Positions 3,158-16,703 of a stretch of 41,593 nt of DNA are shown piece by piece. The translations under genes and the position numbers were made by a program. A model generated the notes under the pieces. It made no database searches. It was not told where the DNA came from and worked only from the letters and a program-made list of their open reading frames with translations. The DNA comes from Planctomycetota bacterium (GTDB lineage: Bacteria > Planctomycetota > UBA1135), in assembly GCA_002705055.1 (NCBI GenBank), contig PAHY01000001.1, forward strand, positions 1 to 41,593, written 5' to 3'. How positions within the stretch are numbered: position 1 is the stretch's first letter; the number at the start of each line of letters is the position of its first letter.

Positions 3158-5347
3158 TTATTCGAAGAATCGCGCCCCCGTCCGGGCCATCTCCTGCAAA
3201 CGCGCTGCCGGCGTGAACTTCTCGCGCCCGCCCGGCCGCCCGGACACTTCAGGCGAATCGGCAATCGCCTCGAGTTTGCGCACCAGCAATTCGGCGCCGA
3301 CGTGATCGGCGTAATGCAGCAAGCCTCCGTGGAAGGGGGCGAAGCCCATGCCGAAGACCGTGGCCAGGTCCAGCTCGGCGGGGCCGGCGACGACCTGCTC
3401 TTCCAAGGCGCGCACGCCTTCGTTCAGCATCGAGAGCACAAGGCGATCGACGATCTGTTCGTCGCTCAGTCGATCGCCCTCGCGGCCTGACTGGAAGCTG
3501 GCCAGATCCGGAGCCAGCGTCTCGCGCTGCTTACTCTTGCCCTGCGGGTGGACGTAGAAGCCGCGGCCGGTCTTACGGCCGAGGCGATCCGGGCTGCGCA
3601 TGCCGTCCAGATCCTTGCTGGGTTCCATGCGCGCGCCATAGGCGGCATGCAGCGAAGCCGAAGCATGATCGGCGATATCCAGCCCCACTTCGTCCAGGAG
3701 GCGCAGCGGGCCCATCGGCATGCCGAAGTCCAGCATCAAATGGTCGATGCGGCGCGGCTGCACGCCGGCGGCGAACAGGCGCACTGCTTCGTCGAGATAG
3801 GGGCCGAGCAGACGATTGACCAGGAAGCCGGCTACGTCCCGAACCAGGACCGGGGTCTTGCCGAGGCGCACGGCCAGCGCGGCGGTCGACAGCGCGACCT
3901 CCTGCGAGGTCTGCTCGCCGAGCACGATCTCGACCAGCGGCATCTTCTTGACCGGGTTGAAGAAGTGCATGCCGACCACCCGCTCAGGGTGGGGGACGCC
4001 GGCGGCGATCTCGGTGACGGACAGCGAGGAGGTGTTGGTGGCCAGGATGCATTCCGGGCTCACCTGCTCCGCCAGCTGCTGGAACACCGACTGCTTCACC
4101 TCGAGCCGCTCGGCCACGGCCTCGATGATGAGGTCGGCGCGGCCGAAGCCGTTCATGGCGCGAGTGGTGTCGAGGCGATCGCCGGCGGCGAGCGCCTCGT
4201 GCTTCTGCAGGCGGCGACGCTTCAGGCGCTTGGCGATCTCCTTGCGGTGCTGATGCAGCGCGGTGTCGAGCGCGCCGGGCGCGAGGTCGAAGAGCCGCGT
4301 CGCCACGCCGCGATCGGCGAAGTTGCTGGCGATGCCCGCGCCCATCACGCCCGCGCCCAGGACTCCGGCCTGCTGAATCGCGCGCGGCGTGAAGTCGTCG
4401 GTCCTGCGGCCGAGCTTCTTGGCCTCTTCCGAGGCGTGGAAGATCGAGATCAGCGCTTTGCAGACCTTGCCCGGGCCCAGCTCGGCGATGGCGTCGGCTT
4501 CCTTCTTGGCCGCGGCCTCAAGGGAAGTGTTGAGCGCGCTCCCGAGCAGATCGATGGCCCGCAGCGGCGCCGGGTAGTTGCCGCGCGTCTTGGCCAGGAC
4601 CGTCTCGCGCGCCTTGCGCATGATCATGCCGACCGCGAGCGGGTTGCGGTCGATGGCCCAGGACTTCCAGCCGCGCTGCTTGCGCTGGATCGACTCCTCG
4701 CCCAAGGCGATCCGCTGGGCCACGGCGAGCAGCCGCTCGGGCTGCGTCATGCGGTCGATCATGCCCAGCTTCAGCGCCGAGCGGGCCGGGTACAGCCGGC
4801 CGCTGAGGATGGCCTGGGTTGCTGCCGGCATGCCGATGCGGCGCGGCAGGCGGTGCGTGCCGCCCCAGCCCGGGATGATGCCGAGCATGGTCTCGGGCAG
4901 GCCGATCTTGGTCTTCTTGTCGTCGGCGGCGACGATGAAGTCGCAGCTGAGCGAGAGCTCGAAGGCGCCACCCGGCACCGGCCCGCCGACGGCAGCCACG
5001 GTGCGCGGCCGCAGCGCGGCGATCCGCCGGAACAGGGCATGGACCTGCATGACGATCGCGTGCAGCTGGGTGCGGTCGGTGATCGACTCGATCGCATCGA
5101 CGTCGGCGCCCGCAGCAAACTTCAGTGGCTCGGCGCCGGCGAAGACGATGCCGCGCAGGCCGTGGGTGTTCTCCAGCTCGCTGACTGCGGCTTCGAGATC
5201 GCGGATCAGCGGCGCGTCCAGGACCGCCAGGCTGCGGTGCGGCGGGTCGAGCACGACCACGGCCAGGCCGGGCTCGGGGCGCTCGATGCGCACGCAGGCG
5301 CCGGGCTCGGGCGCGTTCTCAGGGAAGGGAAGACCGTGGGTTTCCAT
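3158..5347 (-). CDS. fadJ: Fatty-acid oxidation multifunctional protein, FadJ/FadB-type (enoyl-CoA hydratase / 3-hydroxyacyl-CoA dehydrogenase)
   Basis: A 729-residue protein, the usual length of bacterial beta-oxidation alpha subunits. Residues ~18-210 form the crotonase fold: oxyanion-hole region FAAGADV, and both catalytic glutamates in place (PGGAFELSLSCD, E130; GLPETMLGIIPG, E152). From ~326 the NAD-binding Rossmann part begins (GAGVMGAGIA), followed by the dehydrogenase signature HFFNPVKKMPLVE and a C-terminal helical domain that includes GRKTGRGFYVH. It hydrates enoyl-CoA and oxidises 3-hydroxyacyl-CoA in the cytoplasm. The usual NG before the first glutamate is GG here, a mild variation. 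It starts three bases after the fadI stop, so the two form one transcript in the same order as E. coli fadIJ. Confidence 0.95.
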   Translation of the reverse strand: METHGLPFPENAPEPGACVRIERPEPGLAVVVLDPPHRSLAVLDAPLIRDLEAAVSELENTHGLRGIVFAGAEPLKFAAGADVDAIESITDRTQLHAIVMQVHALFRRIAALRPRTVAAVGGPVPGGAFELSLSCDFIVAADDKKTKIGLPETMLGIIPGWGGTHRLPRRIGMPAATQAILSGRLYPARSALKLGMIDRMTQPERLLAVAQRIALGEESIQRKQRGWKSWAIDRNPLAVGMIMRKARETVLAKTRGNYPAPLRAIDLLGSALNTSLEAAAKKEADAIAELGPGKVCKALISIFHASEEAKKLGRRTDDFTPRAIQQAGVLGAGVMGAGIASNFADRGVATRLFDLAPGALDTALHQHRKEIAKRLKRRRLQKHEALAAGDRLDTTRAMNGFGRADLIIEAVAERLEVKQSVFQQLAEQVSPECILATNTSSLSVTEIAAGVPHPERVVGMHFFNPVKKMPLVEIVLGEQTSQEVALSTAALAVRLGKTPVLVRDVAGFLVNRLLGPYLDEAVRLFAAGVQPRRIDHLMLDFGMPMGPLRLLDEVGLDIADHASASLHAAYGARMEPSKDLDGMRSPDRLGRKTGRGFYVHPQGKSKQRETLAPDLASFQSGREGDRLSDEQIVDRLVLSMLNEGVRALEEQVVAGPAELDLATVFGMGFAPFHGGLLHYADHVGAELLVRKLEAIADSPEVSGRPGGREKFTPAARLQEMARTGARFFE

Positions 5348-5350
5348 GGC

Positions 5351-6673
5351 TCAGCCGATGCGTTCGAGGACCACGGCGCCACCTTGGCCGCCGCCGATGC
5401 AGAGAGTCGCGAGAGCCAGCTCGTGGTCGCCGGCTTCCAGTTCGTGCGCTGCGGTGAGCAGCAGGCGGGCGCCGGTCGCGCCGACCGGGTGCCCCAGCGC
5501 GATCGCGCCGCCGTGGACGTTGGTGCGATGCAGATCCAGCTCGCCGAGCGCGGCGCCCTGGCCCAGATGCTTGTCGGCCCAGGCGCGGCTCTCCAAGGCG
5601 CGTCCGCAGGCCAGCACCTGCGCGGCGAAGGCTTCATTGAGCTCGATCACACCCATGTCGGCGAGCGAGCAGCCGGCCGCCTTCAGCGCACCGGCGCTGG
5701 AGTAGACCGGGCCGAGACCCATGCGCTGCGGCTCGCAGCCGGACCAGGCAAAGGAGCGCACCCGCGCGAGCGGGGTCAGGCCCAGCTCCTTGGCGCGCTT
5801 CTTGGTCGTGACCAGCAGCGCGGCCGCGCCATCGGTGATGCCGCAGCTGTTGCCGACCGTGACGATGCCGTCCGGCTTCTCGAAGTAGGGCTTCAGCTTG
5901 CCCAGCCGTTCCATCGACTGATCGGCGCGGATGGAATCGTCGGCGTCGACCGAGCGGCTGCCCGGCTTGGCGCGCGGCGGCAGGTGCGGCAGGATCTCGC
6001 GGTCGAAGCGGCCGGACTTCTGGGCGTCCATGGCGCGCTCATGACTGCGCATGGCGTAGCCGTCGCACTCGTCGCGGGTCAGCCCCCAATCCTTGGCGAG
6101 GCGCTCGGCCGTCTTGCCCATGATCATGCCGGAGACCGGATCGGTCAGGCCTTCGACCAGCGCGATGCGCGGCTTCAGCATGGACGGGCGGAAGCGCAGC
6201 GCCGCCCCGATCTTCTGCATGGGGGAGCGCGCCTTCATCAGCCCTTCGAAGTAGCCGGTCAGGCGGTGGCCCATGATGAGCGGGTAGCCGCTCATGACCT
6301 CGACCCCGACGGCGAGGTAGGTGTCGCCGAAGCCAGCTTTGATGTTGGCGATCGCGGTGGTGACCGCCTCGATACCGCTGGCGCAGTTGCGCGCCACGGT
6401 GCGGGCGGGGACATGCTGCGGCACGCCGGCGCGCAGCCCGATCACGCGGCCGATGTTGGCCTGGTCATGCGGCGGCCCGACGCAGCCGGCGATGACCTCA
6501 TCGATCGCGGCCGGATCCAGGCCGGTGCGGGCGATCAGCTCGCGGGCGACGTGGGCCCCGAGGTTGCCGGCGTCCTCGTGCCGAAATGCGCCGCCCGCGC
6601 GCACCCAGGGGCTGCGCAAGCCAGCTGCCAGCACGATCTTCGGACCTTCTTCGAGCAGGTTCTGTGCAATCAT
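5351..6673 (-). CDS. fadI: Acetyl-CoA C-acyltransferase (thiolase), FadI-type
   Basis: A thiolase of 440 residues that releases acetyl-CoA in the last step of beta-oxidation. All catalytic parts are visible: nucleophilic Cys97 in ARNCASGIEA, the NEAFA loop, His395 in IALGHPVGATGAR and Cys425 in CIGGGQGG. The ATG at 6673 is preferred over the in-frame TTG just before it because GAGGAG lies 7 bases upstream of the ATG. It is the first gene of the fadI-fadJ operon. Its promoter region contains a tandem palindromic operator almost identical to one in front of tetR-fadE, so it is very likely under the same fatty-acid-responsive repressor. Confidence 0.95.
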   Translation of the reverse strand: MIAQNLLEEGPKIVLAAGLRSPWVRAGGAFRHEDAGNLGAHVARELIARTGLDPAAIDEVIAGCVGPPHDQANIGRVIGLRAGVPQHVPARTVARNCASGIEAVTTAIANIKAGFGDTYLAVGVEVMSGYPLIMGHRLTGYFEGLMKARSPMQKIGAALRFRPSMLKPRIALVEGLTDPVSGMIMGKTAERLAKDWGLTRDECDGYAMRSHERAMDAQKSGRFDREILPHLPPRAKPGSRSVDADDSIRADQSMERLGKLKPYFEKPDGIVTVGNSCGITDGAAALLVTTKKRAKELGLTPLARVRSFAWSGCEPQRMGLGPVYSSAGALKAAGCSLADMGVIELNEAFAAQVLACGRALESRAWADKHLGQGAALGELDLHRTNVHGGAIALGHPVGATGARLLLTAAHELEAGDHELALATLCIGGGQGGAVVLERIG

Positions 6674-6693: not shown

Positions 6694-6722
6694 GTTAACA
6701 CTGTAAACTTAACACCGTCAAC
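6694..6722. promoter_or_regulatory. Probable TetR-family operator in the fadI promoter
   Basis: Two direct units of the form TTAACACYGTMAA lie 14 bases apart (6695 and 6709). Each is an imperfect palindrome, roughly TTAAC-N3-GTNAA. The block is repeated with two mismatches in 28 bases upstream of tetR (13568-13596). It lies 21-50 bases upstream of the fadI ATG and overlaps a TTGACG that could serve as the -35 element on the minus strand, a position expected for repression. Confidence 0.82.
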
Positions 6723-6808
6723 TTCAAGTCGAGGCCTTCTGTTCTTCCATCGGCCACGTTGGGCCCCATCCCACCCGAAACCGGGCGGAACGGGGCGATC
6801 GCTTGGCT

Positions 6809-9800
6809 CTACTCCGGCAGCGTCAACGTGCGCTCGACCCAGCGCTTGCTTGGGTCTGGCAGGACGCGGCCGAGCGACTGCCCATCGACGTAGATCGTCG
6901 GCCCGTCGGCAGGCATGGCGTCCAGGCTCACCCAACCGTGCTCGTCCGTCACCAACTCCCACATGTTGCTCGGTGCACCCGAAACCCGACTTGAAGTCTG
7001 CGCGCGCAGCGGCTGGTGAGTTGCCGGAGCCCCGCTGGCGTGGAGTAGGCGGAGGCGGATGCCATGGGGATCGCCCGTGAGCGCGACCACCTGCCGGGTT
7101 CCGGACGCGACCTCGAAGCCCGGCTCCAGGCGGATCGAGAACATCGCTTCTTTTTCCCTGACCGGAGGGATGTAGTCGACTTCGATAGGTCCCGGCGGGA
7201 TGCCCGGGGCCTCGAAGCGACCCAGCTCGTCGACCAGGAACGCACCGAAGGTGGTGCGGGTGGTGTACCACTGATCGAACTGGCCCCGAGGAGGCAGCGT
7301 CAAGCGCAGGTACACATGCCCGCCAGATACAGGCCCCGCGGGCGTGTGGATGGTCCCTTCGACGGTGGCAGGCTTGAGGTCGCTCAGATCCATCTCCAGC
7401 TCGACTGTCTTGCCACCGCGGAGGCTGACGGTGCCGAAGCTACCTGGCCAGAGGAGCGTGCCTCCGCTCGCACCGCTCCCATTTGCGTCCTTCACCCGAT
7501 TGCCCATCGCAAACTGCACGGCATAGTCGCCGGGGGGCAACTGGTTCGTCTCCGCAACGCCCGTGGAATCAAAGGGCACGGCCTCAATCCGACGGTCGGG
7601 ATCGGCGAGTGAGAACAGCGTGACCTGAGGGATCGGCCACTCGGTCGGCTCGGTGAGCGTGACGCGCAGCACCGCAGGGGGGTCAACCCGCACCGTGGAG
7701 ACCTGCCCGGTGACCGGCGTCCAAGGATCGACCCAGGTTTCGACGTGATTGCCCGTGATGCGCAGGAACATGGGAACGCTCGGGTCCCCCCAGACAGTGG
7801 CGGTGCCATCTGCGCTCGTGACCGCTTCGCTGAGAAGAAGAGGCTGCGTGAGACCGTTGACTTGCTGATCCGGGCGCAGCCGGGTGGGGCGAGGGCGGAA
7901 ATGGCTGGGCAGCGGATGAGAGGCGCCATCCAGCGTCAACACCTGGACATGGCTTCCAACAATCGGCACCCCAGCGGAGTCTTCGACGCGCAAGGTGTAC
8001 TCCGTGAGCGGCGGCAGTTTGACCTGAATGGGGTGGCCGACGGCTGGGAGTTGATCGACGCGCAGCCACTCGCCTGGGCCCACGCCGGGCTGGCTGGGAA
8101 TCACCGCGAGCCAGAACGGAGGTTGGGGGACCGACTCGATCGTCAGCGCGCCACCCTCGTGTGTCCCTCCGTGCTGCCAATCGGAGCTACTCCAGCTCTG
8201 TTGGTTGCCACTGCGAATGGCTTGCGTGAGGACCGCGAAGGACTCGACCGGAGCCCCCGTTGGTTCCTCGACGACGACGATGTCCAAGTTCGGGCGTCGG
8301 TCCAGGGTGATGACCAGATCATGAGTGTCCCACTCGATCCAGTCCTCGCCTTGCCAGGGTTCGGTGACGCCGCCGCGAGTATGCAGTTGGATGGGCCCGG
8401 CGTTCCCGACTCGCTCAATGCGGAAGCTGCCATCCTCGCGCGTCCAGGAAGACATCATGCGCCCGCTCCTGGAAACAGCGGCCTCGCCGATCAGGTAAGC
8501 ACCGCGAATGGGTTCCCCGGCCGCATCGACGACTTTGCCGCGAATTTCCTTCACCTTGTAGACCACGACCTCGAGAGGCCGGGGCAGACCCTGCTCGGAG
8601 ACTTCGAAGCGAGCCGGATCGCGGAGCGCATATCCCTTGCGTCTGCTTGAGAGTCGCAGCGGGTAGGTCCCCGGAGGAACCGGCACACTGAAAGTAAACT
8701 CACCATTTGAGTCGCTCTCCCCGCCCCGCGCGTCATTCGCTGCCATGTCTGTCGCAATGGGTAGCGGTAGATCACTCGCGAGCAGGTACAGACCCTCGAC
8801 GGGCTGGCCACCCTCGTCGACGACTCTCCCCTGAATAACGTGTCCCGGAGTGAGTCGGATTTCGCCGAGATCGGTTTTTGTACCCGCGAACAACTTGTCC
8901 GAGATCGAGGACCAGCGCGCAGTGCGCGGTGCGTAGCCCTCGGGTTCGATGCTGATCGAGAGCTGCATTCCCTTGTGCTCTTCGAACTCCAGCATGAATG
9001 CGCCGGAAGCATCGGTGTGCAGGTCATCGGGATGCATCCAGTCCGGATTGGGATACCGCGCCATGGCCTCGTCGTTCGAGGCGCGGAAATGCACCTTGAC
9101 CAGGGCATGGACCAGGGGCGCGCCCGTCTGATCATCGATGCAGCGCCCCAGGATGCGCACCAGCTGGTCGCTCTCGACCGTGGCAAGGTTGCCCCGCTCT
9201 TCACCACGAGCTTCCGCCGGCGCCCGATCACCTCCTCCGTCCGTCGTCGGCAACGCGACGTCGCCCTCCAGCTGCGCGGCCAGTGTTGCCGAGTTGCGTT
9301 CCTGATCCAGCGTGTCGGTCGGCTCTGGCCCATACAGCGCAGCACCGACCACGATGCTGGCGGCGACGAGGCCGGTGACAATGAGCAGGGGCTTGGCCAA
9401 CGACTCGGCAGGCGCAGGGTTGAAAGCCGGCGGTGCGGGCGCGAATGGCCCCGCGGCGGTCAGGCAAAGCGCGAAAGACTGATCCCCGTAGCGGGAGCTT
9501 AGTAGTTTGCGCAGGCGCTCACGTCCGCGCCGCAGGTGGCTCAGGACGGTCGACTTGGGAACCTTCAGTTGACTGGCGATCTGCTGGGTCGACAGTCCGT
9601 CGAAGTAGTGCAGAAGCAGCGCGTGGCGGTAGGGCTCTTCGAGATCGCGCAAACTGCGGACCAACGCTTCGTGTGCTTCGGTTCGCTCGAGCAGCTCCTC
9701 CGGCGTGGTGGACGAATCTCGAGTCTTCGCCCCTCGATCCGCCGCGCGTGCGACGCGTTGCCTCTGGCTTGTCTCACGGCGGTAGTGATCCGCAGAGCGC

Positions 9801-9994
9801 ATGCGTAGTGCGCCGGACAGCCAGCTCGCCAAGTTGCGGCGATGACGCGGCGGTTGCTCCAGAACGCGCAGCCATGTTTCCTGTACGACATCGTCACGGT
9901 CCCACTCGGCGGCGAGGCGTCCTGCGAGTTGCTGCAGCTGTGGCGCGTAATCAAGCAGCTCCTCAATAGGAATCGGTCTGTCAGAATTCGTCAT
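6809..9994 (-). CDS. Membrane-tethered ECF sigma factor fused to carboxypeptidase-regulatory-like repeats
   Basis: A 1,061-residue fusion. Residues ~15-165 are an ECF sigma factor: region 2 with WDRDDVVQETWLRVLEQ and region 4 with LSTQQIASQLKVPKSTVLSHLRRGRERLR. A Pro/Ala-rich linker leads to one membrane helix at ~202-221 (LLIVTGLVAASIVVGAALYG). The remaining ~840 residues are a series of beta-sandwich units with recurring patterns such as GRVVDEGGQPVEGLYL, GKVVDAAGEPIRGAYL and VEGTIHTPAGPVSGGHVYL, typical of CarboxypepD-regulatory-like domains. The sigma part would face the cytoplasm and the repeats the periplasm. Such fusions are known mainly from Planctomycetota; how the tethered factor reaches promoters is not established. 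Third-position GC looks lower than in fadIJ. Same strand as the unknown secreted protein, which ends 48 bases upstream. Confidence 0.88.
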   Translation of the reverse strand: MTNSDRPIPIEELLDYAPQLQQLAGRLAAEWDRDDVVQETWLRVLEQPPRHRRNLASWLSGALRMRSADHYRRETSQRQRVARAADRGAKTRDSSTTPEELLERTEAHEALVRSLRDLEEPYRHALLLHYFDGLSTQQIASQLKVPKSTVLSHLRRGRERLRKLLSSRYGDQSFALCLTAAGPFAPAPPAFNPAPAESLAKPLLIVTGLVAASIVVGAALYGPEPTDTLDQERNSATLAAQLEGDVALPTTDGGGDRAPAEARGEERGNLATVESDQLVRILGRCIDDQTGAPLVHALVKVHFRASNDEAMARYPNPDWMHPDDLHTDASGAFMLEFEEHKGMQLSISIEPEGYAPRTARWSSISDKLFAGTKTDLGEIRLTPGHVIQGRVVDEGGQPVEGLYLLASDLPLPIATDMAANDARGGESDSNGEFTFSVPVPPGTYPLRLSSRRKGYALRDPARFEVSEQGLPRPLEVVVYKVKEIRGKVVDAAGEPIRGAYLIGEAAVSRSGRMMSSWTREDGSFRIERVGNAGPIQLHTRGGVTEPWQGEDWIEWDTHDLVITLDRRPNLDIVVVEEPTGAPVESFAVLTQAIRSGNQQSWSSSDWQHGGTHEGGALTIESVPQPPFWLAVIPSQPGVGPGEWLRVDQLPAVGHPIQVKLPPLTEYTLRVEDSAGVPIVGSHVQVLTLDGASHPLPSHFRPRPTRLRPDQQVNGLTQPLLLSEAVTSADGTATVWGDPSVPMFLRITGNHVETWVDPWTPVTGQVSTVRVDPPAVLRVTLTEPTEWPIPQVTLFSLADPDRRIEAVPFDSTGVAETNQLPPGDYAVQFAMGNRVKDANGSGASGGTLLWPGSFGTVSLRGGKTVELEMDLSDLKPATVEGTIHTPAGPVSGGHVYLRLTLPPRGQFDQWYTTRTTFGAFLVDELGRFEAPGIPPGPIEVDYIPPVREKEAMFSIRLEPGFEVASGTRQVVALTGDPHGIRLRLLHASGAPATHQPLRAQTSSRVSGAPSNMWELVTDEHGWVSLDAMPADGPTIYVDGQSLGRVLPDPSKRWVERTLTLPE

Positions 9995-10042
9995 TCAAGG
10001 AGACAACCCGACGGAAACAGACTTGAACGCACAAAATTCCAA

Positions 10043-12841
10043 CTAGCGCCCCCAGTAGCGAAGCTGTTCCTTGATCGCGTCCGAGCCGTGCTCGCGGACG
10101 GTATCGAGCAGGCCCTCGATGCGGCCCTGGTCCACCTGGAGGCCCTGGCGCTCGAGGGCTCGGGCGAGCTGCAGCGCGAGGTCGGCGTCCACCGGGTCTT
10201 CGAGCAGGGCTGCCTCGAGCGGCTGGATCAGCTCGGTCATCGGCGCCACATCCTTCGCAAGACTCCAGGCCGCCTCGGCCCAGTTCAACAGATCGATGGG
10301 CTGGCCGTGCCCGGACTCCCAGGCAGTCCGCGCCGCGCGGTAGCGCAGATCGGGCTGGTTGGCGATCGCGAGCAGTCGATAGGCGTGCTCACGCAGGTGC
10401 GCATTGGCCGGCTCGCGGCCGAAGAGCTGGATCAGGTCATCGCTTCCTTCCAGCACCGCCGTCTGCACCAGGGCGTGGAGATCAGGAAGCTGCTCGGCGG
10501 CGTCGAGCATCGCTCGAGCACTGTTCCCGACCCAGAGAGTGCGGCCGTTCCGCATCTCTGCGATTTCGGTCGCGACTTTCCACCACTCCCCCTCATAGCT
10601 GGCGGCGCTGCGCAGGATCTCCTCGGGGTGCAGTCCGAGCACGTCCAGCCGGTCCAGCGGGATGCCGCTGCGATGCGCCGAGGCCGAGGGCGGTCCCGGC
10701 AGGTGCTCTCCTCCTTGATCGATCACGAAGCGCATGATCATGGCACTCAGCAGCCACTGGCTTGCCTCACTGAGTCCTTCGCGCGTGCAGTGCCGCACGA
10801 TCCAACGGTCCAGCTGCTTCGCATGGCGCGGGAGCGGCGTGCCGGTGCGGGCCTCGCAGGCCGCATCAGCCCGGGCCAGCGCGGCTTCCCACGCGGACCA
10901 CGGGGTCGCACTGCCTGGAAGAGGGCGAGCCTGCTCGGCGATGGCATCCAGGTCTTCGGCGCTCGCGGCACCGAAGCGCCGCTTCCATTCCTTCAGCTCT
11001 TCCATCGGCATGCGCAGCAGCGCGAACTGCGGCTCGCTGGGTTTGAAGGCGGGAGGCGTTTCGAAGGGGCTGACGAAGGTCACGACGCCATCCGCAGCCA
11101 GGTCGACGGGTTTGATGTCGAGATCGATGAGCAGCTCCAAGGCGCCGTCGGCGTGCAGGTAGTAGAGACCCTCCTCGCCGCCAAGAGGTGTGCCTTGAAC
11201 CAGCCAGCCGTGCGGGGCCGGCGCGTGCGACTGCACCCAATCCCATTCCCCGAGCTCGGTCAGATTGCCGCCGACCGCGTCGAAGCAGTGCATCTTCGTG
11301 CCCTGCCGCCCGACCTGGCTCGTGACGACCAGGATGAGATTGCAGTCGAGGTCCTCCTGCAGGGATCGGACGCTGCCGAAGGGAATGCGCGTCGAGTCGT
11401 TGTCCCTGCCGCGGTCGCGTACGACGAGCTCGGCATGGCCGGGCCCTCTCGACCACCAGTCGCCGGGGACGTAGCCGCGCGCGTGGTTGCGAGCGATGAC
11501 CACCGTTCCGACCGGGCCGGCCGCCAGCGCATCGGCTTCGATGCGCGTCAGCTTGGCGCCATCCTCGCGCAGCGTGCGCACTTCGTCGTCTTCGTTGAGG
11601 AAGAGCAGGACCCCGCGGACCACCGCCCCGTCATGGGACCAGCCGATCTTCGCTTCCTGCACTTGGGTCGTGCCGGAATCGGGGTAGAGCGTGTAGGCGA
11701 AGGGGCGCCCCAGGCCGGTGTAGTGATCGCCGACGCGATACACCGCATCGACGTACTCGGGCAGGTCGCCCAGCTTCTCGCAGGCTTCGAGAAAGGCCAG
11801 CTCGTCCTCATCCAAGGGATCGGGCGGCGGCGGGAGAGCGACCTGGGTATCGGGGAGTCCGGCAAACTGGACCGAGGCGAGCAATCGATCCACCATCCAG
11901 TTCAGGTCGCTGGGCTCGCCGGAAACGCGGAAGCTGGCAAGAGCCTGCGAGTCGGGGCCCGTTGGAATCACCGCGAGGTGCGCGTGCGCCTGAGAGAAGG
12001 TGCCGATCTTGTAGCGGCAAAGCACGCCTTCGCGCCCGTCGACCTCGAGCGGGACCCGCTCGAAGAAGCTGGTCGCGCCGTACTCCTCTTCCAGCTCGGC
12101 ACGTCCCGCCGCGATCGCCGCGCCGAGCGAACCGTACGAAGCGGCTTGGATGCGGCAGCGCACCCGCCGATCCATCGAGACCAACTCGAGGAGTTCGTCC
12201 GGCGCGACGTGCGCGGTATTCCACAGGCCGGGGGAGTAGTCCAGGCTCAGGCTCGCGGAGTCGCCCAGCTCGAGCTTGAGGGGGCGCGGGGCGACCTCCT
12301 GCGTCCAGGCATCGTCCGCATCCGGGAAGCGAAAACCCGCCATCACCTGTTCAAGCGCTTCTTTCCCCAGGCTGGCTTGCCGGCCTTCACTGACCGCCGC
12401 GACCGCGAAGCTGAGGCCGTACTCGCCGACGACGCCCATGCGTACGGTGATGTTCTCGCCATCCAACTCGCCCAGCCCCGTCACGACGCAGAGACTGCGG
12501 CGGTCCACGGGAAGGATGAACTCCTCGTCGGTTGGCTGAAGGCCACCGAAGGTCTGGAAGACTGTCAGCAGCGTGCGGGCCGCGTTGAAATCACCGCTCG
12601 CGGGAACAGCTTTGTCCTGAACCTGGAGGATCGCGATGGTCGTGCCCTTGAACTTCCCGCGGTGCTCGAGTTCGATCCGATCCGGCCGCGCTGCGCCGGA
12701 GCGGTACCAGCCATCCGCGAGCAGGATCTCTGCGCCCTGTTCGCCGACCGGAAAGGGGCCGGGATCCGGGCGATTGATCGTCCAGACCATCGCGACGAAG
12801 GCGACGATCAGGAGCAAAGCAAGTCGAGTGGGGGAGAGCAT
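10043..12841 (-). CDS. Large exported or membrane-anchored protein of unknown function
   Basis: A 932-residue protein from the chosen ATG, beginning with an N-terminal hydrophobic segment (RLALLLIVAFVAMVW) that acts as signal peptide or anchor. An in-frame ATG at 12874 would add 11 residues and has AGGA ten bases upstream, so the start is open. Residues ~30-175 and ~185-310 look like two related alpha/beta units ending in phrases such as AGFRFP and LASVQF, reminiscent of DUF1795/PsbP-like domains. A central beta-rich region follows (e.g. TLYPDSGTTQVQEAKIGWSH) that could be propeller-like. The last ~250 residues are helical, with TPR-like character. No enzyme motif is recognised. It precedes the sigma fusion gene on the same strand and is divergent from the flavin reductase. 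Confidence 0.72.
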   Translation of the reverse strand: MLSPTRLALLLIVAFVAMVWTINRPDPGPFPVGEQGAEILLADGWYRSGAARPDRIELEHRGKFKGTTIAILQVQDKAVPASGDFNAARTLLTVFQTFGGLQPTDEEFILPVDRRSLCVVTGLGELDGENITVRMGVVGEYGLSFAVAAVSEGRQASLGKEALEQVMAGFRFPDADDAWTQEVAPRPLKLELGDSASLSLDYSPGLWNTAHVAPDELLELVSMDRRVRCRIQAASYGSLGAAIAAGRAELEEEYGATSFFERVPLEVDGREGVLCRYKIGTFSQAHAHLAVIPTGPDSQALASFRVSGEPSDLNWMVDRLLASVQFAGLPDTQVALPPPPDPLDEDELAFLEACEKLGDLPEYVDAVYRVGDHYTGLGRPFAYTLYPDSGTTQVQEAKIGWSHDGAVVRGVLLFLNEDDEVRTLREDGAKLTRIEADALAAGPVGTVVIARNHARGYVPGDWWSRGPGHAELVVRDRGRDNDSTRIPFGSVRSLQEDLDCNLILVVTSQVGRQGTKMHCFDAVGGNLTELGEWDWVQSHAPAPHGWLVQGTPLGGEEGLYYLHADGALELLIDLDIKPVDLAADGVVTFVSPFETPPAFKPSEPQFALLRMPMEELKEWKRRFGAASAEDLDAIAEQARPLPGSATPWSAWEAALARADAACEARTGTPLPRHAKQLDRWIVRHCTREGLSEASQWLLSAMIMRFVIDQGGEHLPGPPSASAHRSGIPLDRLDVLGLHPEEILRSAASYEGEWWKVATEIAEMRNGRTLWVGNSARAMLDAAEQLPDLHALVQTAVLEGSDDLIQLFGREPANAHLREHAYRLLAIANQPDLRYRAARTAWESGHGQPIDLLNWAEAAWSLAKDVAPMTELIQPLEAALLEDPVDADLALQLARALERQGLQVDQGRIEGLLDTVREHGSDAIKEQLRYWGR

Positions 12842-12905
12842 GCAGCGGACTGGAAAGAAGTGGCTCCTTGGCATACTAGCCTGATCCTGTGAACCGCCTT
12901 TGCCG

Positions 12906-13520
12906 ATGACCGAGGTCCTGCTCCCCTCCGAGCTCTCGCCGAGCCGCAACTACTTCCTGCTGACCAGCCTGCTGGTGCCGCGGCCGATCGCCTGGGTGAG
13001 CACGCGCTCGGCGGCAGGGGTGGTCAACGTGGCGCCGTTCTCGTTCTATGGCGGCATCTCGGGCAATCCACCCATCCTCGGGCTGGGGATCGGGCGGCGC
13101 GCGGATGGTCGGCCCAAGGACACCGCGCGCAACGCGATCGAGACCGGCGAGTTCGTGGTGCACCTCGTCGAGGAGGACCAGGTCGAAGCGATGGTCGGCT
13201 GCTCCGCCGAGCTCGAGCCGGAGGTGTCCGAGGCGGAGGCGCTGGGCCTCGTGCTCGAAGACTCCCGCTTGGTCCAGCCGCCCTCGCTGGCCCGGGCGCG
13301 GGTCCGACTCGAGTGTCGGCTGCACCAGCACCAGGAGGTCGGAAACGGGCCGGTCGACTTCCTGATGGGGGAGGTCGTGGCCTTCGTGCTGGCCGAGGGC
13401 TTGCTCGATGAAGCCGGTCGGGTCGACGAAGAGCAGTTGCAGCCGGTCTCCCGGCTAGGGGGCGCCTGGTATGCCCCGGTGCGGGATCGTTTCCGTGCGC
13501 AACGCCCTACAAATAAGTGA
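12906..13520 (+). CDS. Flavin reductase-like FMN-binding split-barrel protein
   Basis: A 204-residue protein of the flavin reductase / FMN-binding split-barrel family. Characteristic are the N-terminal RNYFLLTSLLVPRPIAWVST, the flavin-contact stretch NVAPFSFYGGISGNPPILGLGI, and DTARNAIETGEFVVHLV. Members bind FMN and reduce it, or use it, with NAD(P)H. The partner here is unknown. ATG 12906 is preferred over an in-frame TTG two codons upstream. A short GC-rich hairpin with four Ts follows the stop, so the gene is probably transcribed alone, between the divergent secreted-protein gene and the separately controlled tetR-fadE operon. Confidence 0.88.
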   Translation: MTEVLLPSELSPSRNYFLLTSLLVPRPIAWVSTRSAAGVVNVAPFSFYGGISGNPPILGLGIGRRADGRPKDTARNAIETGEFVVHLVEEDQVEAMVGCSAELEPEVSEAEALGLVLEDSRLVQPPSLARARVRLECRLHQHQEVGNGPVDFLMGEVVAFVLAEGLLDEAGRVDEEQLQPVSRLGGAWYAPVRDRFRAQRPTNK

Positions 13521-13541
13521 GATAGGGAGAATCAGTCAGAT

Positions 13542-13561
13542 CCGGCTGGAGCCGGGCTTTT
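13542..13561 (+). terminator. Intrinsic terminator after the flavin reductase gene
   Basis: CCGGC (13542-13546), loop TGGA and GCCGG (13551-13555) form a short strong stem, followed by GC and TTTT (13558-13561). It separates the flavin reductase transcript from the tetR operator that begins seven bases later. Confidence 0.6.
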
Positions 13562-13567
13562 CTCTGA

Positions 13568-13596
13568 CTTAACAGTGTAAACTTAACGCCGTCAAC
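13568..13596. promoter_or_regulatory. Probable TetR-family operator in the tetR-fadE promoter
   Basis: The block shares 26 of 28 bases with the one in front of fadI. It has the same two palindromic half-units (TTAACAGTGTAA and TTAACGCCGTCAA) 14 bases apart, and lies 31-59 bases upstream of the tetR ATG. Presence at both the regulator and a pathway gene is the classic sign of a self-regulating local repressor. Confidence 0.82.
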
Positions 13597-13626: not shown

Positions 13627-14241
13627 ATGTTCATGGCCCGCGCCAAGCCCAGCAAGGAACTCCGCGCCTCCATCCTCGATGAGGCGCGCCAGACCCTCGT
13701 CGCCGAGGGCTACCGGGCGCTTTCCATGCGCCGGATCGCGCGGGCGGTCGGCTGCACGGCCACCAGCATCTACCTCCACTTCCGCGACAAGGACGACCTG
13801 CTCCACGCGCTGATTCACGAGGGGCTGGAGCGCCTGCACGAGCAGCTGCTCGCCTCGGTGGACGGCATCGAGGATCCGCTGCGTCGCTGCCAGCGGCTCT
13901 GTCGCTCCTACCTCGAGTTCGCGCTCGAGAATCGCGAGTACTACGAGGTCATCTTCTCGCTTCACCCCGAACACATGAAGCGCTACCCGCAGGCGCTTTA
14001 CCGTCGGGCGCGCGAGAACCTGGAGTACTTCGCCGATGCCCTCGCCGCCGCCGCCGGCCGCGCCGGAGATCGGCGCGACGAGGACATCCTCCACGCCCAC
14101 GTGATCTGGGCGCAGCTGCACGGTGCAGTCAGCCTGCACCTCGACGAACGACTCGACTTCCGCATCGACGTGCTCGCCTTTCTCGACGCGGCGGTCGCCA
14201 ACGCGCTCTGCGCGGTTCCTCATCCGGACGAACAGGAATGA
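13627..14241 (+). CDS. TetR-family transcriptional repressor, probable fatty-acid degradation regulator
   Basis: A 204-residue TetR protein. The N-terminal DNA-binding domain (residues ~9-55) shows ILDEARQTLVAEGYRALSMR, the helix-turn-helix RRIARAVGCTATSIYLHF and the following RDKDDLLHALI. The remaining helical domain has no diagnostic motif but resembles TetR proteins with a WHG-type C-terminal domain (YLEFALENREYYEVIF). Its TGA overlaps the fadE ATG (ATGA), so repressor and acyl-CoA dehydrogenase are co-translated. The operator upstream recurs at fadI. An acyl-CoA ligand is therefore likely, by analogy with other TetR regulators of beta-oxidation, but it is inferred. A second ATG two codons in (13633) is equally possible as start. 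Confidence 0.9.
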   Translation: MFMARAKPSKELRASILDEARQTLVAEGYRALSMRRIARAVGCTATSIYLHFRDKDDLLHALIHEGLERLHEQLLASVDGIEDPLRRCQRLCRSYLEFALENREYYEVIFSLHPEHMKRYPQALYRRARENLEYFADALAAAAGRAGDRRDEDILHAHVIWAQLHGAVSLHLDERLDFRIDVLAFLDAAVANALCAVPHPDEQE

Positions 14242-16703
14242 CGACTTTCCTCCTTCTCCTCATCGCCACTCTGGCACTCGGCTTCTTCGGCGCGCCCGCT
14301 GTGGGCTGGGCCGGGGGCTACGCGCTGATCCTGATGTGGACCGGCGCCGGGACCACGGCCTGGGTGCTGTTCGGCGCCTTCGTGGTGCTGTTCCTCGCGC
14401 CGCCGGTGCGCCGCACCCTGCTGACCAAGCCGCTCATGGGCTTCCTCAAGAAGGCCGGCATCCTGCCCGCGATCTCGCGCACCGAACGCGAGGCCTTGGA
14501 AGCCGGCACCGTCTGGCTCGAAGGCGAGCTGTTCAGCGGCAAGCCCGAGCTACAGAAGCTGCTCGACGTCGAATCCCCGGAGCTGAATGAAAGCGAGCAG
14601 GCCTTCCTCGACGGTCCGGTCGAGGAGCTGTGCGCGATGACCGACGACTGGGAGGTCTTCCAGAAGCGCGATCTGTCGCCGCAGGTCTGGGCGAAGATGA
14701 AGGAGCTCGGCTTCTTCGGCATGATCATCCCCAAGAAGTACGGCGGCCTCGAACTGTCGGCCAACGCGGTGAGCGCGGTCATCGGCAAGATGTCATCGCG
14801 TTCGATTCCGCTGGGGATCACCGCGATGGTGCCGAACTCGCTCGGCCCCGCCGAACTCCTGGCGCACTACGGCACCGACGCGCAGAAGGACCACTACCTG
14901 CCCAAGCTCGCGACCGGCGAGATCATCCCTTGCTTCGCGCTGACGGAGCCGAACGCCGGCTCGGATGCCGGCGCGATGGAAGCGCGCGGCGTGGTGGTGC
15001 GCAATGATGCCGGTGAGCTGGTGCTGCGACTCAACTGGAAGAAGCGTTACATCACGCTGGCGGCCATCGCCGACGTGATCGGCCTAGCCTTCAAGCTGGA
15101 AGACCCGGACATGCTGCTGGGCGGCGATCCGCACCCCGGCATCACTTGCGCGCTGATTCCGGCGGATGCGCCGGGCATCGTGCGTGGCCGCCAGCACGAT
15201 CCGCTGAACGTCCCCTTCTTCAACAGCCCCTTCGAGGGTCACGATGTCGAGGTGCCGGTCAGCGCGATCATCGGCGGGCCCGAGCGCGCCGGCCAGGGAT
15301 GGCGCATGCTCATGGAACAGCTCGCCGCCGGCCGCGGCATCATGCTGCCGGCGCAGAGCGCGGCCGGCACGAAGGCGATGGCCCGGATCACCGGCGCCTA
15401 TGCCGCGGTCCGCAAGCAGTTCGGTCTGCCGATCGGCAAGTTCGAGGGCATCGCCGAGCCGATGGCCGACATCGGCGCGCGCGCTTATCTGCTCGAAGCG
15501 ACGCGCCGCATCACCGCGGGCGCGCTCGATGGCGGCGCCAAGCCGGCCGTCGTCTCGGCGATTGCGAAGTACAACTTCACCGAGAGCTTCCGCAAATCGA
15601 TCAACGACGCGATGGACATCGTCGGCGGCGCGGGGATCTCGCGCGGCCCGCGCAACCTGATCGCGCACCCTTACTTCGCCGCGCCGATCTCGATCACGGT
15701 GGAAGGCGCCAACATCCTCACGCGCACGCTGATGATCTTCGGCCAAGGGGCGATCCGTTGTCACCCCTATGCCTACCGCGAAATCAGTGCGCTCGAGAAG
15801 GGCGACCTGGTCGAGTTTGATGACGCCTTCTGGGGCCACATCGCGCACATCGTGCGCAACGGCTCGCGCGCGCTGCTGCTCACGCTTTCGCGCGGTCACT
15901 TCGCCAGTTGCCCGATCGAAGGTCCGGCGCGCCGCGACCTGCAGAAGCTGTCTTGGGCTTCGGCCAGCTTCGCGTTCTGGGCAGACGTCGCGATGGGTGT
16001 CTACGGCGGCAACCTGAAGCGCAAGGAAGTCCTGACCGGTCGCTTCAGCGATGTGCTGTCGTGGATGTACCTAGCTTCGGCGACGGTGCGCCGCTTCGAA
16101 GGCGAAGGCCGTCGCGCTGAAGACCTGCCCTTCTACCGCGCCGCGATGGACCTGTGCTGGCAGCAGATGCAGCGCGCTTTCGATGGTATCTATGCCAACC
16201 TCGACGTACCGGGTCTGAGTTGGGCAGTACGCGGGCCGGTGGCTTGGTGGTCGCGCTCGAACAGCCTGGGCAATGGGATCGCCGACGACACCACCGCGCG
16301 AGTTGCTGCAGCCATGCAGACCCCGGGCGAACAGCGCGAGCGCTTGTTCGACATGCTCTACCTTCCGCAGGAACAAGGCGAGGCGGTGTACCGTCTGGAA
16401 ACGGCCTTCCTCGCTTGCGTCGAAGCGGAAGCTGTCCTAGGGAAGATCAAGAAAGCCATGCGCAAACGCGACCTTCCCAAGATGCCCCTGCTCGAAGCGC
16501 TCGAGCCAGCTGCGCGCGCAGGCATCCTGACGATGGCCGAAGTCGAGCAGGTGCGTGCCGCCGAGAAGCTGCGCGCCGATGCGATCGCCGTCGATGGTTT
16601 CTCGCACCGCGATTACGAACGGACGGCTGCGGAAGGTGGCTGGGACGATGACTCGTCCTCACAAGGTGGCTCGATGCCGACTTCGTCGGTACCGGCTGCC
16701 TGA
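14238..16703 (+). CDS. fadE: Acyl-CoA dehydrogenase, FadE-type
   Basis: An 821-residue protein, close to the ~814 residues of E. coli FadE and far longer than ordinary acyl-CoA dehydrogenases. Two N-terminal membrane segments (about residues 3-22 and 33-54) precede a linker and the dehydrogenase core with YGGLELSANAVS, CFALTEPNAGSDAGAME, the FAD-binding helices, and the FadE hallmark VEGANILTRTLMIFGQGAIR. The C-terminal ~280 residues correspond to the FadE-specific DUF1974 region. It carries out the first, FAD-dependent step of beta-oxidation at the membrane and feeds FadI-FadJ encoded earlier in the window. Overlaps tetR by four bases. Confidence 0.95.
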   Translation: MTTFLLLLIATLALGFFGAPAVGWAGGYALILMWTGAGTTAWVLFGAFVVLFLAPPVRRTLLTKPLMGFLKKAGILPAISRTEREALEAGTVWLEGELFSGKPELQKLLDVESPELNESEQAFLDGPVEELCAMTDDWEVFQKRDLSPQVWAKMKELGFFGMIIPKKYGGLELSANAVSAVIGKMSSRSIPLGITAMVPNSLGPAELLAHYGTDAQKDHYLPKLATGEIIPCFALTEPNAGSDAGAMEARGVVVRNDAGELVLRLNWKKRYITLAAIADVIGLAFKLEDPDMLLGGDPHPGITCALIPADAPGIVRGRQHDPLNVPFFNSPFEGHDVEVPVSAIIGGPERAGQGWRMLMEQLAAGRGIMLPAQSAAGTKAMARITGAYAAVRKQFGLPIGKFEGIAEPMADIGARAYLLEATRRITAGALDGGAKPAVVSAIAKYNFTESFRKSINDAMDIVGGAGISRGPRNLIAHPYFAAPISITVEGANILTRTLMIFGQGAIRCHPYAYREISALEKGDLVEFDDAFWGHIAHIVRNGSRALLLTLSRGHFASCPIEGPARRDLQKLSWASASFAFWADVAMGVYGGNLKRKEVLTGRFSDVLSWMYLASATVRRFEGEGRRAEDLPFYRAAMDLCWQQMQRAFDGIYANLDVPGLSWAVRGPVAWWSRSNSLGNGIADDTTARVAAAMQTPGEQRERLFDMLYLPQEQGEAVYRLETAFLACVEAEAVLGKIKKAMRKRDLPKMPLLEALEPAARAGILTMAEVEQVRAAEKLRADAIAVDGFSHRDYERTAAEGGWDDDSSSQGGSMPTSSVPAA

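What the first reader, a model, noticed from the sequence alone, without database searches (positions are those of the whole stretch)
6694..13596. One operator sequence in front of both fadI and tetR-fadE: a local beta-oxidation regulon
A 28-bp block with two direct, imperfectly palindromic units (TTAACACYGTMAA, 14-bp period) occurs at 6694-6722 upstream of fadI and, with two mismatches, at 13568-13596 upstream of tetR. In both cases it lies in the promoter of a beta-oxidation transcript. The two places are 7 kb apart and otherwise unrelated, so the match is unlikely to be chance. The simplest reading is that the TetR protein represses its own fadE operon and the remote fadIJ operon, released by an acyl-CoA.
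Basis: partly seen in the sequence, partly recalled or inferred. Interest (0 to 1): 0.72.

Follow-up and report, generated by a model that had tools for sequence, protein, structure and literature searches.

The report
TetR tandem operators split by insertion
In a bacterium whose named relatives are Planctomycetota, nearly the same 29-base double DNA site stands before two sets of fat-burning genes 7 kb apart, and related genomes, where the two sets lie back to back beside the gene of a TetR-type protein, suggest that this protein likely binds both sites and is predicted to keep both gene sets off until a fatty-acid signal arrives.

Summary
A tandem site (15-bp unit STTNACRSYGTNAAS twice, sharing one base) lies at 6694-6722 before fadI-fadJ and 13568-13596 before tetR-fadE, and nowhere else in the held genome with up to 3 mismatches. 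That the TetR controls both is strongly supported, but "otherwise unrelated" is wrong. In 23 of 23 same-family relatives with the tetR ortholog, fadI and tetR-fadE are divergent around the site (directly adjacent in 22); the window is that control region pulled apart by 6.8 kb. The site follows the TetR: an exact unit lies upstream of 24 of 24 family tetR genes and 30 of 39 Rhodothermia/Balneola-type ones, but in 0 of 17 genomes with fadE and no tetR ortholog. Recognition-helix residue 46 is Thr in 36 of 36 site-bearing and 8 of 14 site-less sequences. Over 392 phylum genomes all 12 exact tandem sites lie at this locus. Binding, repression and the acyl-CoA signal are inferred. The mechanism is an ordinary kind (TetR-type divergent repression); the regulator clade looks undescribed and the locus is a readable case of regulon fission.

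The parts
6694..6722 (.). Tandem operator A (two 15-bp units that share one base), 20 bp before the fadI ATG
   Evidence: a tandem site stands next to fadI in the two-operator relatives L055, L056, L057, L065
13568..13596 (.). Tandem operator B, 30 bp before the tetR ATG
   Evidence: a tandem site upstream of tetR in 22 of 23 family relatives
13627..14241 (+). tetR: TetR-family regulator, 204 aa, TetR_N + TetR_C_33; likely the protein that reads both operators
   Evidence: Pfam; model, mean pLDDT 92.7; site follows this gene
14238..16703 (+). fadE: acyl-CoA dehydrogenase of the FadE type, overlapping the end of tetR by 4 bases (one transcript likely)
   Evidence: only ACDH_C match in the held genome
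5351..6673 (-). fadI: acetyl-CoA acyltransferase (thiolase), likely first gene of a fadI-fadJ transcript
3158..5347 (-). fadJ: 3-hydroxyacyl-CoA dehydrogenase / enoyl-CoA hydratase, 3 bp after fadI
6809..9994 (-). Gene between the operators: ECF-type sigma factor fused to a long tail with carboxypeptidase-regulatory-like repeats; not taken as part of the regulon
   Evidence: no room for it in the fadI-tetR gap of 23 family relatives (60-301 bp, 906 bp in L055)
10043..12841 (-). Gene between the operators: 932-aa protein without Pfam match at E 1e-5
   Evidence: gap sizes in relatives
12900..13520 (+). Gene between the operators: flavin-reductase-like protein; in G011 (L055) a homolog lies between the two operators
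13541..13566 (+). Terminator-like hairpin after the flavin-reductase gene, just before operator B
   Evidence: 1 found, 0.3 expected in shuffles

Best explanation
The two sites are operators most likely bound by the TetR-family protein encoded at 13627-14241, probably one dimer per 15-bp unit, which is predicted to repress its own tetR-fadE transcript and the fadI-fadJ transcript and would be released by a fatty-acid signal, likely an acyl-CoA. In same-family relatives the two gene sets are divergent and share one control region with one or two copies of the same site. The window most likely descends from a two-operator form in which genes were inserted between the two copies, so that each half kept its own operator (regulon fission). 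Shown by sequence: the sites, their spacing, gene order in relatives, the coupling of site to tetR, and the link with residue 46. Inferred: binding itself, two dimers, repression, acyl-CoA as inducer, and the order of events.
For: Site follows the regulator: exact unit within 300 bp upstream of tetR in 24 of 24 family loci (window included), 4 of 7 loci of a second planctomycete group, 30 of 39 Rhodothermia/Balneola-type loci, 6 of 27 distant ones; reversed pattern in 0 of all 97; shuffled means 0.065, 0.01, 0.305, 0.2. The central bases were left free in the pattern yet come out R in 42 of 43 and Y in 43 of 43 family units. In the 61-genome set, 28 genomes have fadE plus the tetR ortholog (E up to 1e-40) and 27 of 28 carry a unit at tetR; 17 have fadE without it and 0 of 17 carry a unit in 3 kb upstream of fadE (Fisher 1.6e-11, not corrected for kinship). 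G026 has fadE head-to-head with fadIJ, no tetR there and no unit. Residue 46 is Thr in 36 of 36 unit-bearing and 8 of 14 unit-less sequences of alignment A2, the strongest of 62 columns tested (p 1.9e-4). Tandem sites (up to 2 mismatches) in 23 of 24 family loci, 28 sites, one fixed 14-bp period (the period is part of the pattern searched). fadI and tetR-fadE divergent in 23 of 23 family relatives, directly adjacent in 22. Two-operator forms G008, G017, G004 and, with a flavR homolog between the operators, G011; window and G011 are sisters, G008 next (supports 100 and 100). Phylum scan: 12 exact tandem sites in 10 of 392 genomes, all at this locus, control 0. Fold neighbours include acyl-CoA binders FasR, AibR and Bacillus FadR.
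Against: No binding, expression or ligand data were found for this protein. 9 of 39 Rhodothermia/Balneola-type loci have no exact unit (3 have one with 1 mismatch, 6 none), and 8 of 14 unit-less sequences in A2 keep Thr46. One family locus, L066 (G015), has a single unit only. No sigma-70-like promoter was recognised at either site, so overlap with promoters is assumed. The same unit stands before RND efflux operons headed by 30-35% identical TetRs (4 of the 6 distant unit-bearing loci), so the site alone does not say 'fatty acid'. The flavR genes of window and G011 are only 54% identical and their tree is unresolved (supports 20-38), so one shared flavR insertion is not shown. The fold is general for TetR proteins and does not name a ligand. 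The fadE-without-tetR comparison looked upstream of fadE only, not of fadI, except in G026, and used 3 kb against 300 bp at tetR; several of those 17 genomes have weaker TetR matches elsewhere.
Confidence: 0.85

Rival explanations
1. The TetR binds only its own operator B; operator A is a fossil of the ancestral region that now has little effect on fadI.
For: fadI now lies 7 kb from tetR, and the age of the insertion is unknown, so operator A could persist for lack of time.
Against: Operator A fits the family tandem pattern with 0 mismatches while the TetR itself is only 68-71% identical to its nearest relatives found (G011, G008).
Confidence: 0.07
2. A different regulator of beta-oxidation reads the site, and tetR is merely one of its targets.
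For: TetR genes can be targets of other regulators; no binding data here.
Against: The unit is missing upstream of fadE when the tetR ortholog is missing (0 of 17) and present before RND-pump operons headed by a related TetR (4 loci); its presence goes with residue 46 of this TetR's recognition helix.
Confidence: 0.04
3. The TetR is an activator, or a repressor whose signal is not an acyl-CoA (for example a free fatty acid, as reported for TfmR).
For: Some TetR proteins activate (NCBIfam calls FasR an activator); [quoted passage not shown]
Against: In 14 of 23 family relatives the gap between fadI and tetR is 110 bp or less and the 29-bp site lies inside it, a quarter to a half of the gap; divergent TetR genes under 200 bp from their neighbour repressed it in all five streptomycete cases tested (PMC3511530, passages).
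Confidence: 0.2
4. The match is chance or a structural repeat.
For: None found.
Against: 5 matches against 0.19 expected in the window; reversed-pattern controls 0 in 61 and in 392 genomes; the unit recurs upstream of tetR in two unrelated groups of bacteria.
Confidence: 0.01

Closest known systems
TetR-tetA divergent control region
   Same: Divergent target, TetR-family dimer, two 15-bp palindromic operators between the two genes (PMC3511530, passages); close to the layout of the two-operator relatives.
   Different: Here each operator is itself a tandem of two 15-bp units; targets are beta-oxidation genes; in the window the two operators are 6.8 kb apart.
Thermus thermophilus FadR (TTHA0101)
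   Same: TetR-family regulator of fatty-acid degradation genes; its 15-bp consensus TTRNACYNRGTNYAA shares the AC-N3-GT core (PMC5597230, passages).
   Different: Outer half-sites and centre differ (R..Y here, Y..R there); several target promoters in Thermus, one locus here.
Bacillus FadR (YsiA)
   Same: TetR fold neighbour (3whb, 3whc); [quoted passage not shown]
   Different: NCBIfam FadR model scores 36.9 against a cut-off of 200.
TfmR (Xanthomonas citri) and PsrA (Pseudomonas)
   Same: TetR-family repressors of fadE-type genes; TfmR is divergent to its target operon (PMC6637906, PMC10304680; passages).
   Different: PsrA site is G/CAAAC(N2-4)GTTTG/C; the PsrA model scores 25.4 against 300. 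The TfmR site was not seen.
Sulfolobus FadR(Sa)
   Same: Local regulon of lipase and beta-oxidation genes, release by acyl-CoA, one or two dimers per operator (PMC6449355, passages).
   Different: Archaeal; 16-bp dyad motif; 30-kb cluster.
DarR dimer-of-dimers binding
   Same: Two TetR-type dimers on overlapping palindromes (PMC10636190, passages).
   Different: Binding mode here is only predicted, with units 14 bp apart.

Membership tests
TetR family of regulators | N-terminal TetR_N HTH and all-helical C-terminal domain | tested here: met
   TetR_N 53.9 bits (cut-off 24), TetR_C_33 56 bits (cut-off 26.8); all-helical model
TetR family of regulators | Palindromic site next to its own gene | tested here: met
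TetR family of regulators | DNA binding and release by a ligand | not testable with these tools
   needs an experiment
Bacillus-type FadR (NCBIfam NF053878) | curated score cut-off 200 | tested here: not met
   36.9 bits
PsrA (NCBIfam NF053516) | curated score cut-off 300 | tested here: not met
   25.4 bits
PsrA | operator G/CAAAC(N2-4)GTTTG/C | tested here: not met
   neither window site holds AAAC(N2-4)GTTT on either strand (by eye on the sequence; motif from PMC10304680)
FasR (NCBIfam NF053731) | curated score cut-off 330 | tested here: not met
   41.1 bits
Thermus FadR | operator TTRNACYNRGTNYAA | tested here: not met
   first unit of operator A keeps AC-N3-GT but misses the R, Y, R and Y positions (by eye; motif from PMC5597230)
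Thermus FadR | orthology to TTHA0101 | tested here: inconclusive
   no row naming it among the 60 shown of 143 or 60 of 133, nor among the 50 rows; no direct comparison made
Repressor of beta-oxidation (works like FadR-type TetRs) | operators in front of fad transcripts | tested here: met
   held genome 85% complete

The most novel reading that the evidence does not exclude
A clade of TetR repressors with one operator code (STTAAC-RSY-GTTAAS, read through Thr46) spans Planctomycetota and Rhodothermia/Balneola-type bacteria and reaches back to RND-pump repressors, so the operator is older than its fatty-acid cargo; in the planctomycetes the operator became a tandem, was copied once more to give each divergent promoter its own, and this copy let the regulon be pulled 7 kb apart without losing control: operator duplication first, gene insertion later, with living intermediates.
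Probability: 0.5. Interest if true: 0.65.

Novelty: new member of a known kind. Interest (0 to 1): 0.48.

Why it matters
Eight searches of the held open-access papers listed no title on a regulator of beta-oxidation in Planctomycetota, and twelve exact 13-bp units, the window's own four among them, occur in 0 papers; papers outside that library were not seen. The operator, its 15-bp code and a candidate specificity residue make binding directly testable. The locus also suggests how a regulator can come to have a 'remote' target: not by a new site arising far away but by an old divergent region being split after the operator was duplicated. The rule that predicts TetR targets from the divergent neighbour (PMC3511530, passages) would miss fadIJ here, because the gene next to tetR is now a co-directional flavin-reductase-like one.

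Tried and rejected
Chance or repeat artefact: rejected by shuffles and reversed-pattern controls. Genome-wide regulon with further tandem sites: none found with up to 3 mismatches; the 12 other loose single units equal the reversed control in number. Promoter overlap: no sigma-70-type promoter recognised, so not claimed. Naming the protein FadR, PsrA or FasR: NCBIfam cut-offs not met. Ligand from fold: neighbours include FasR with C20-CoA, AibR with isovaleryl-CoA and Bacillus FadR with stearoyl-CoA, but also DarR, Rv1816, KstR2 and AcrR, so the fold does not decide. Literature match of the motif: 0 papers for twelve exact 13-mers. One shared flavR insertion in window and G011: flavR tree unresolved. 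Plasmid carriage: 140 records with a match, all under 60% identity, the 10 rows listed at 31.6-36.0%. The query 'big968' was cut out of frame and gave no information; absence of that gene between fadI and tetR in relatives rests on gap sizes, which are measured between protein-match ends, not start codons. Choice of loci: of the 80 loci, 9 were left out as copies of family loci already counted, and L111 and L123 because the tetR match starts 5 and 35 bases from the locus end; L128, L134 and L138 were counted with the second planctomycete group by gene order and similarity, not by a taxonomy call; L133 (41% identity) was counted with the distant group, otherwise 27-37%. The residue-46 test used the 50 sequences of alignment A2, not all 97 loci.
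Full report
CHECK OF THE OBSERVATION. Over 28 tandem sites in 23 of 24 same-family loci the left flank is G or C in 28 of 28, the middle base in 28 of 28 and the right flank in 26 of 28, so the unit is best written as a 15-mer, S-TTNAC-RSY-GTNAA-S, and the block as two 15-mers that share one base (29 bp). In the held genome (3.85 Mb in 64 contigs, 85% complete) no third copy exists with up to 3 mismatches and the reversed control gives none.

SURROUNDINGS. On the minus strand fadI (5351-6673) and fadJ (3158-5347) are 3 bp apart; on the plus strand tetR (13627-14241) and fadE (14238-16703) overlap by four bases. Between the operators lie a sigma factor fused to a tail with carboxypeptidase-regulatory-like repeats, a 932-aa protein without Pfam match, and a flavin-reductase-like gene followed by a terminator-like hairpin just before operator B.

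RELATIVES. A close tetR ortholog (E up to 1e-40) was found in 23 of 25 other genomes of the same family (G013 has only a 37% match and G019 none), so the family set is 24 loci with the window. Contigs of some of these genomes recur, with the same lengths, under Planctomycetota titles in the named collection (the 70,701-bp contig of G008 is JAJFFB010000101.1). In all 23 relatives fadI and tetR are divergent and fadE follows tetR; fadJ follows fadI in 20, and in the other three (L071, L079, L080) the contig ends inside fadI. The gap between the fadI and tetR matches is 60-301 bp in 22 and 906 bp in G011, where a flavin-reductase gene lies in it. 22 of 23 relatives have a tandem site with up to 2 mismatches; L066 has a single unit. 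18 have one tandem site; G008, G017 and G004 have two, one near each gene, and G011 has two with the flavin-reductase gene between them. A tree of FadI+TetR+FadE from 28 loci joins window and G011 (support 100), then G008 (100). The simplest history is: two operators first (G008 state), then flavR (G011 state), then the sigma fusion and the 932-aa gene (window only). The flavR tree does not resolve whether the two flavR insertions are one event: window and G011 copies are 54% identical, while a G004 copy elsewhere in that genome is 62% identical to the window's.

WHO READS THE SITE. Four tests point to this TetR. (1) Co-occurrence: exact unit within 300 bp upstream of tetR in 24 of 24 family loci, 4 of 7 of a second planctomycete group, 30 of 39 Rhodothermia/Balneola-type loci, 6 of 27 distant TetRs; the reversed pattern in 0 of 97. 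In the Rhodothermia/Balneola-type genomes gene order differs: tetR directly before fadE, or tetR, an ORF of about 640 aa (AMP-binding in the two scanned, L106 and L110) and then fadJ-, fadI- and fadE-like genes. There the site is a single unit in most loci (31 units in 30 loci), yet it stays with tetR. (2) Absence: in the 61-genome set 45 have fadE; 28 of these have the tetR ortholog and 27 of 28 carry a unit at tetR (the exception, G036, has a GATAA-type variant); the other 17 carry none in 3 kb upstream of fadE, including G026, where fadE and fadIJ are head to head without tetR. (3) Other cargo: of the 6 distant unit-bearing loci, L158, L159, L171 and L173 have a related TetR (30-35% identity) that heads an RND pump operon; the other two, L154 and L157, have no such pump among the neighbours looked at. 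(4) Residue 46, in the third helix of the model (45-49; the recognition helix by general knowledge of the family), is Thr in 36 of 36 unit-bearing sequences and in 8 of 14 without the unit, the strongest of 62 columns. In L078, L134 and L138, where it is Ala, Ala and Pro, the operator region reads GATAA instead of GTTAA. L134 and L138 are sisters in the tree (L078 was not in it), so this may be one event, and L101 shows a half GATAA site with Thr46. Kinship is not corrected for in tests 2 and 4.

SPECIFICITY OF THE REGULON. In 392 genomes drawn from the phylum (13 of them from the window's family) the exact tandem pattern occurs at 12 places in 10 genomes, all of them at the fad/tetR locus and all in the window's family; the reversed control gives none. 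The single unit does occur before other genes (RND pumps) in distant bacteria, together with related TetRs.

MECHANISM. Likely each 15-bp unit takes one TetR dimer, so a tandem takes two, 14 bp apart; dimer-of-dimers binding is known for DarR and, for one operator, Sulfolobus FadR (PMC10636190 and PMC6449355, passages). The site lies 20 and 30 bp from the start codons and in compact relatives takes up a quarter to a half of the gap between divergent genes, which fits repression by blocking the promoters; no consensus promoter was recognised. Divergent TetR genes closer than 200 bp to their neighbour repressed it in the five streptomycete cases tested (PMC3511530, passages). Release by an acyl-CoA is inferred from what the genes do and from relatives; the model (pLDDT 92.7) resembles FasR, AibR and Bacillus FadR among many other TetR proteins, which does not settle the ligand.

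KNOWN OR NEW. TetR-type control of beta-oxidation is a known kind of system (Bacillus and Thermus FadR, PsrA, TfmR, Sulfolobus FadR; passages). This protein meets none of the curated NCBIfam models for FadR, PsrA or FasR and its operator differs from the two published motifs compared here (PsrA, Thermus FadR). I file it as a new member of a known kind, with an unusual evolutionary history: a divergent regulon split in two while each half kept an operator.

Noticed in passing
window 6809-9994 (-): ECF-type sigma factor (regions 2 and 4) fused to about 900 residues with carboxypeptidase-regulatory-like repeats.
   Followed up: no
window 10043-12841 (-): 932-aa protein without Pfam match at E 1e-5.
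   Followed up: no
window 12900-13520 (+); L055 13891-14478: Flavin-reductase-like gene that sits between the two operators in G011 and next to operator B in the window; homologs lie elsewhere in G004, G013, G014, G015 and G026 (27 genomes).
   Followed up: partly
L158, L159, L171, L173 upstream of tetR: The same 13-bp unit before TetR genes that head RND efflux operons; L171 has three units in a row.
   Followed up: partly
L078, L134, L138 fadI-tetR gaps: Operator variant with GATAA half-sites together with Ala or Pro at TetR residue 46.
   Followed up: partly
L189 (G026): fadE and fadI-fadJ head to head without a tetR gene and without the site: a natural control.
   Followed up: partly
L110, L113, L118, L122 upstream of tetR: A small clade (support 82) that keeps the TetR with Thr46 but has no recognisable unit upstream.
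   Followed up: partly
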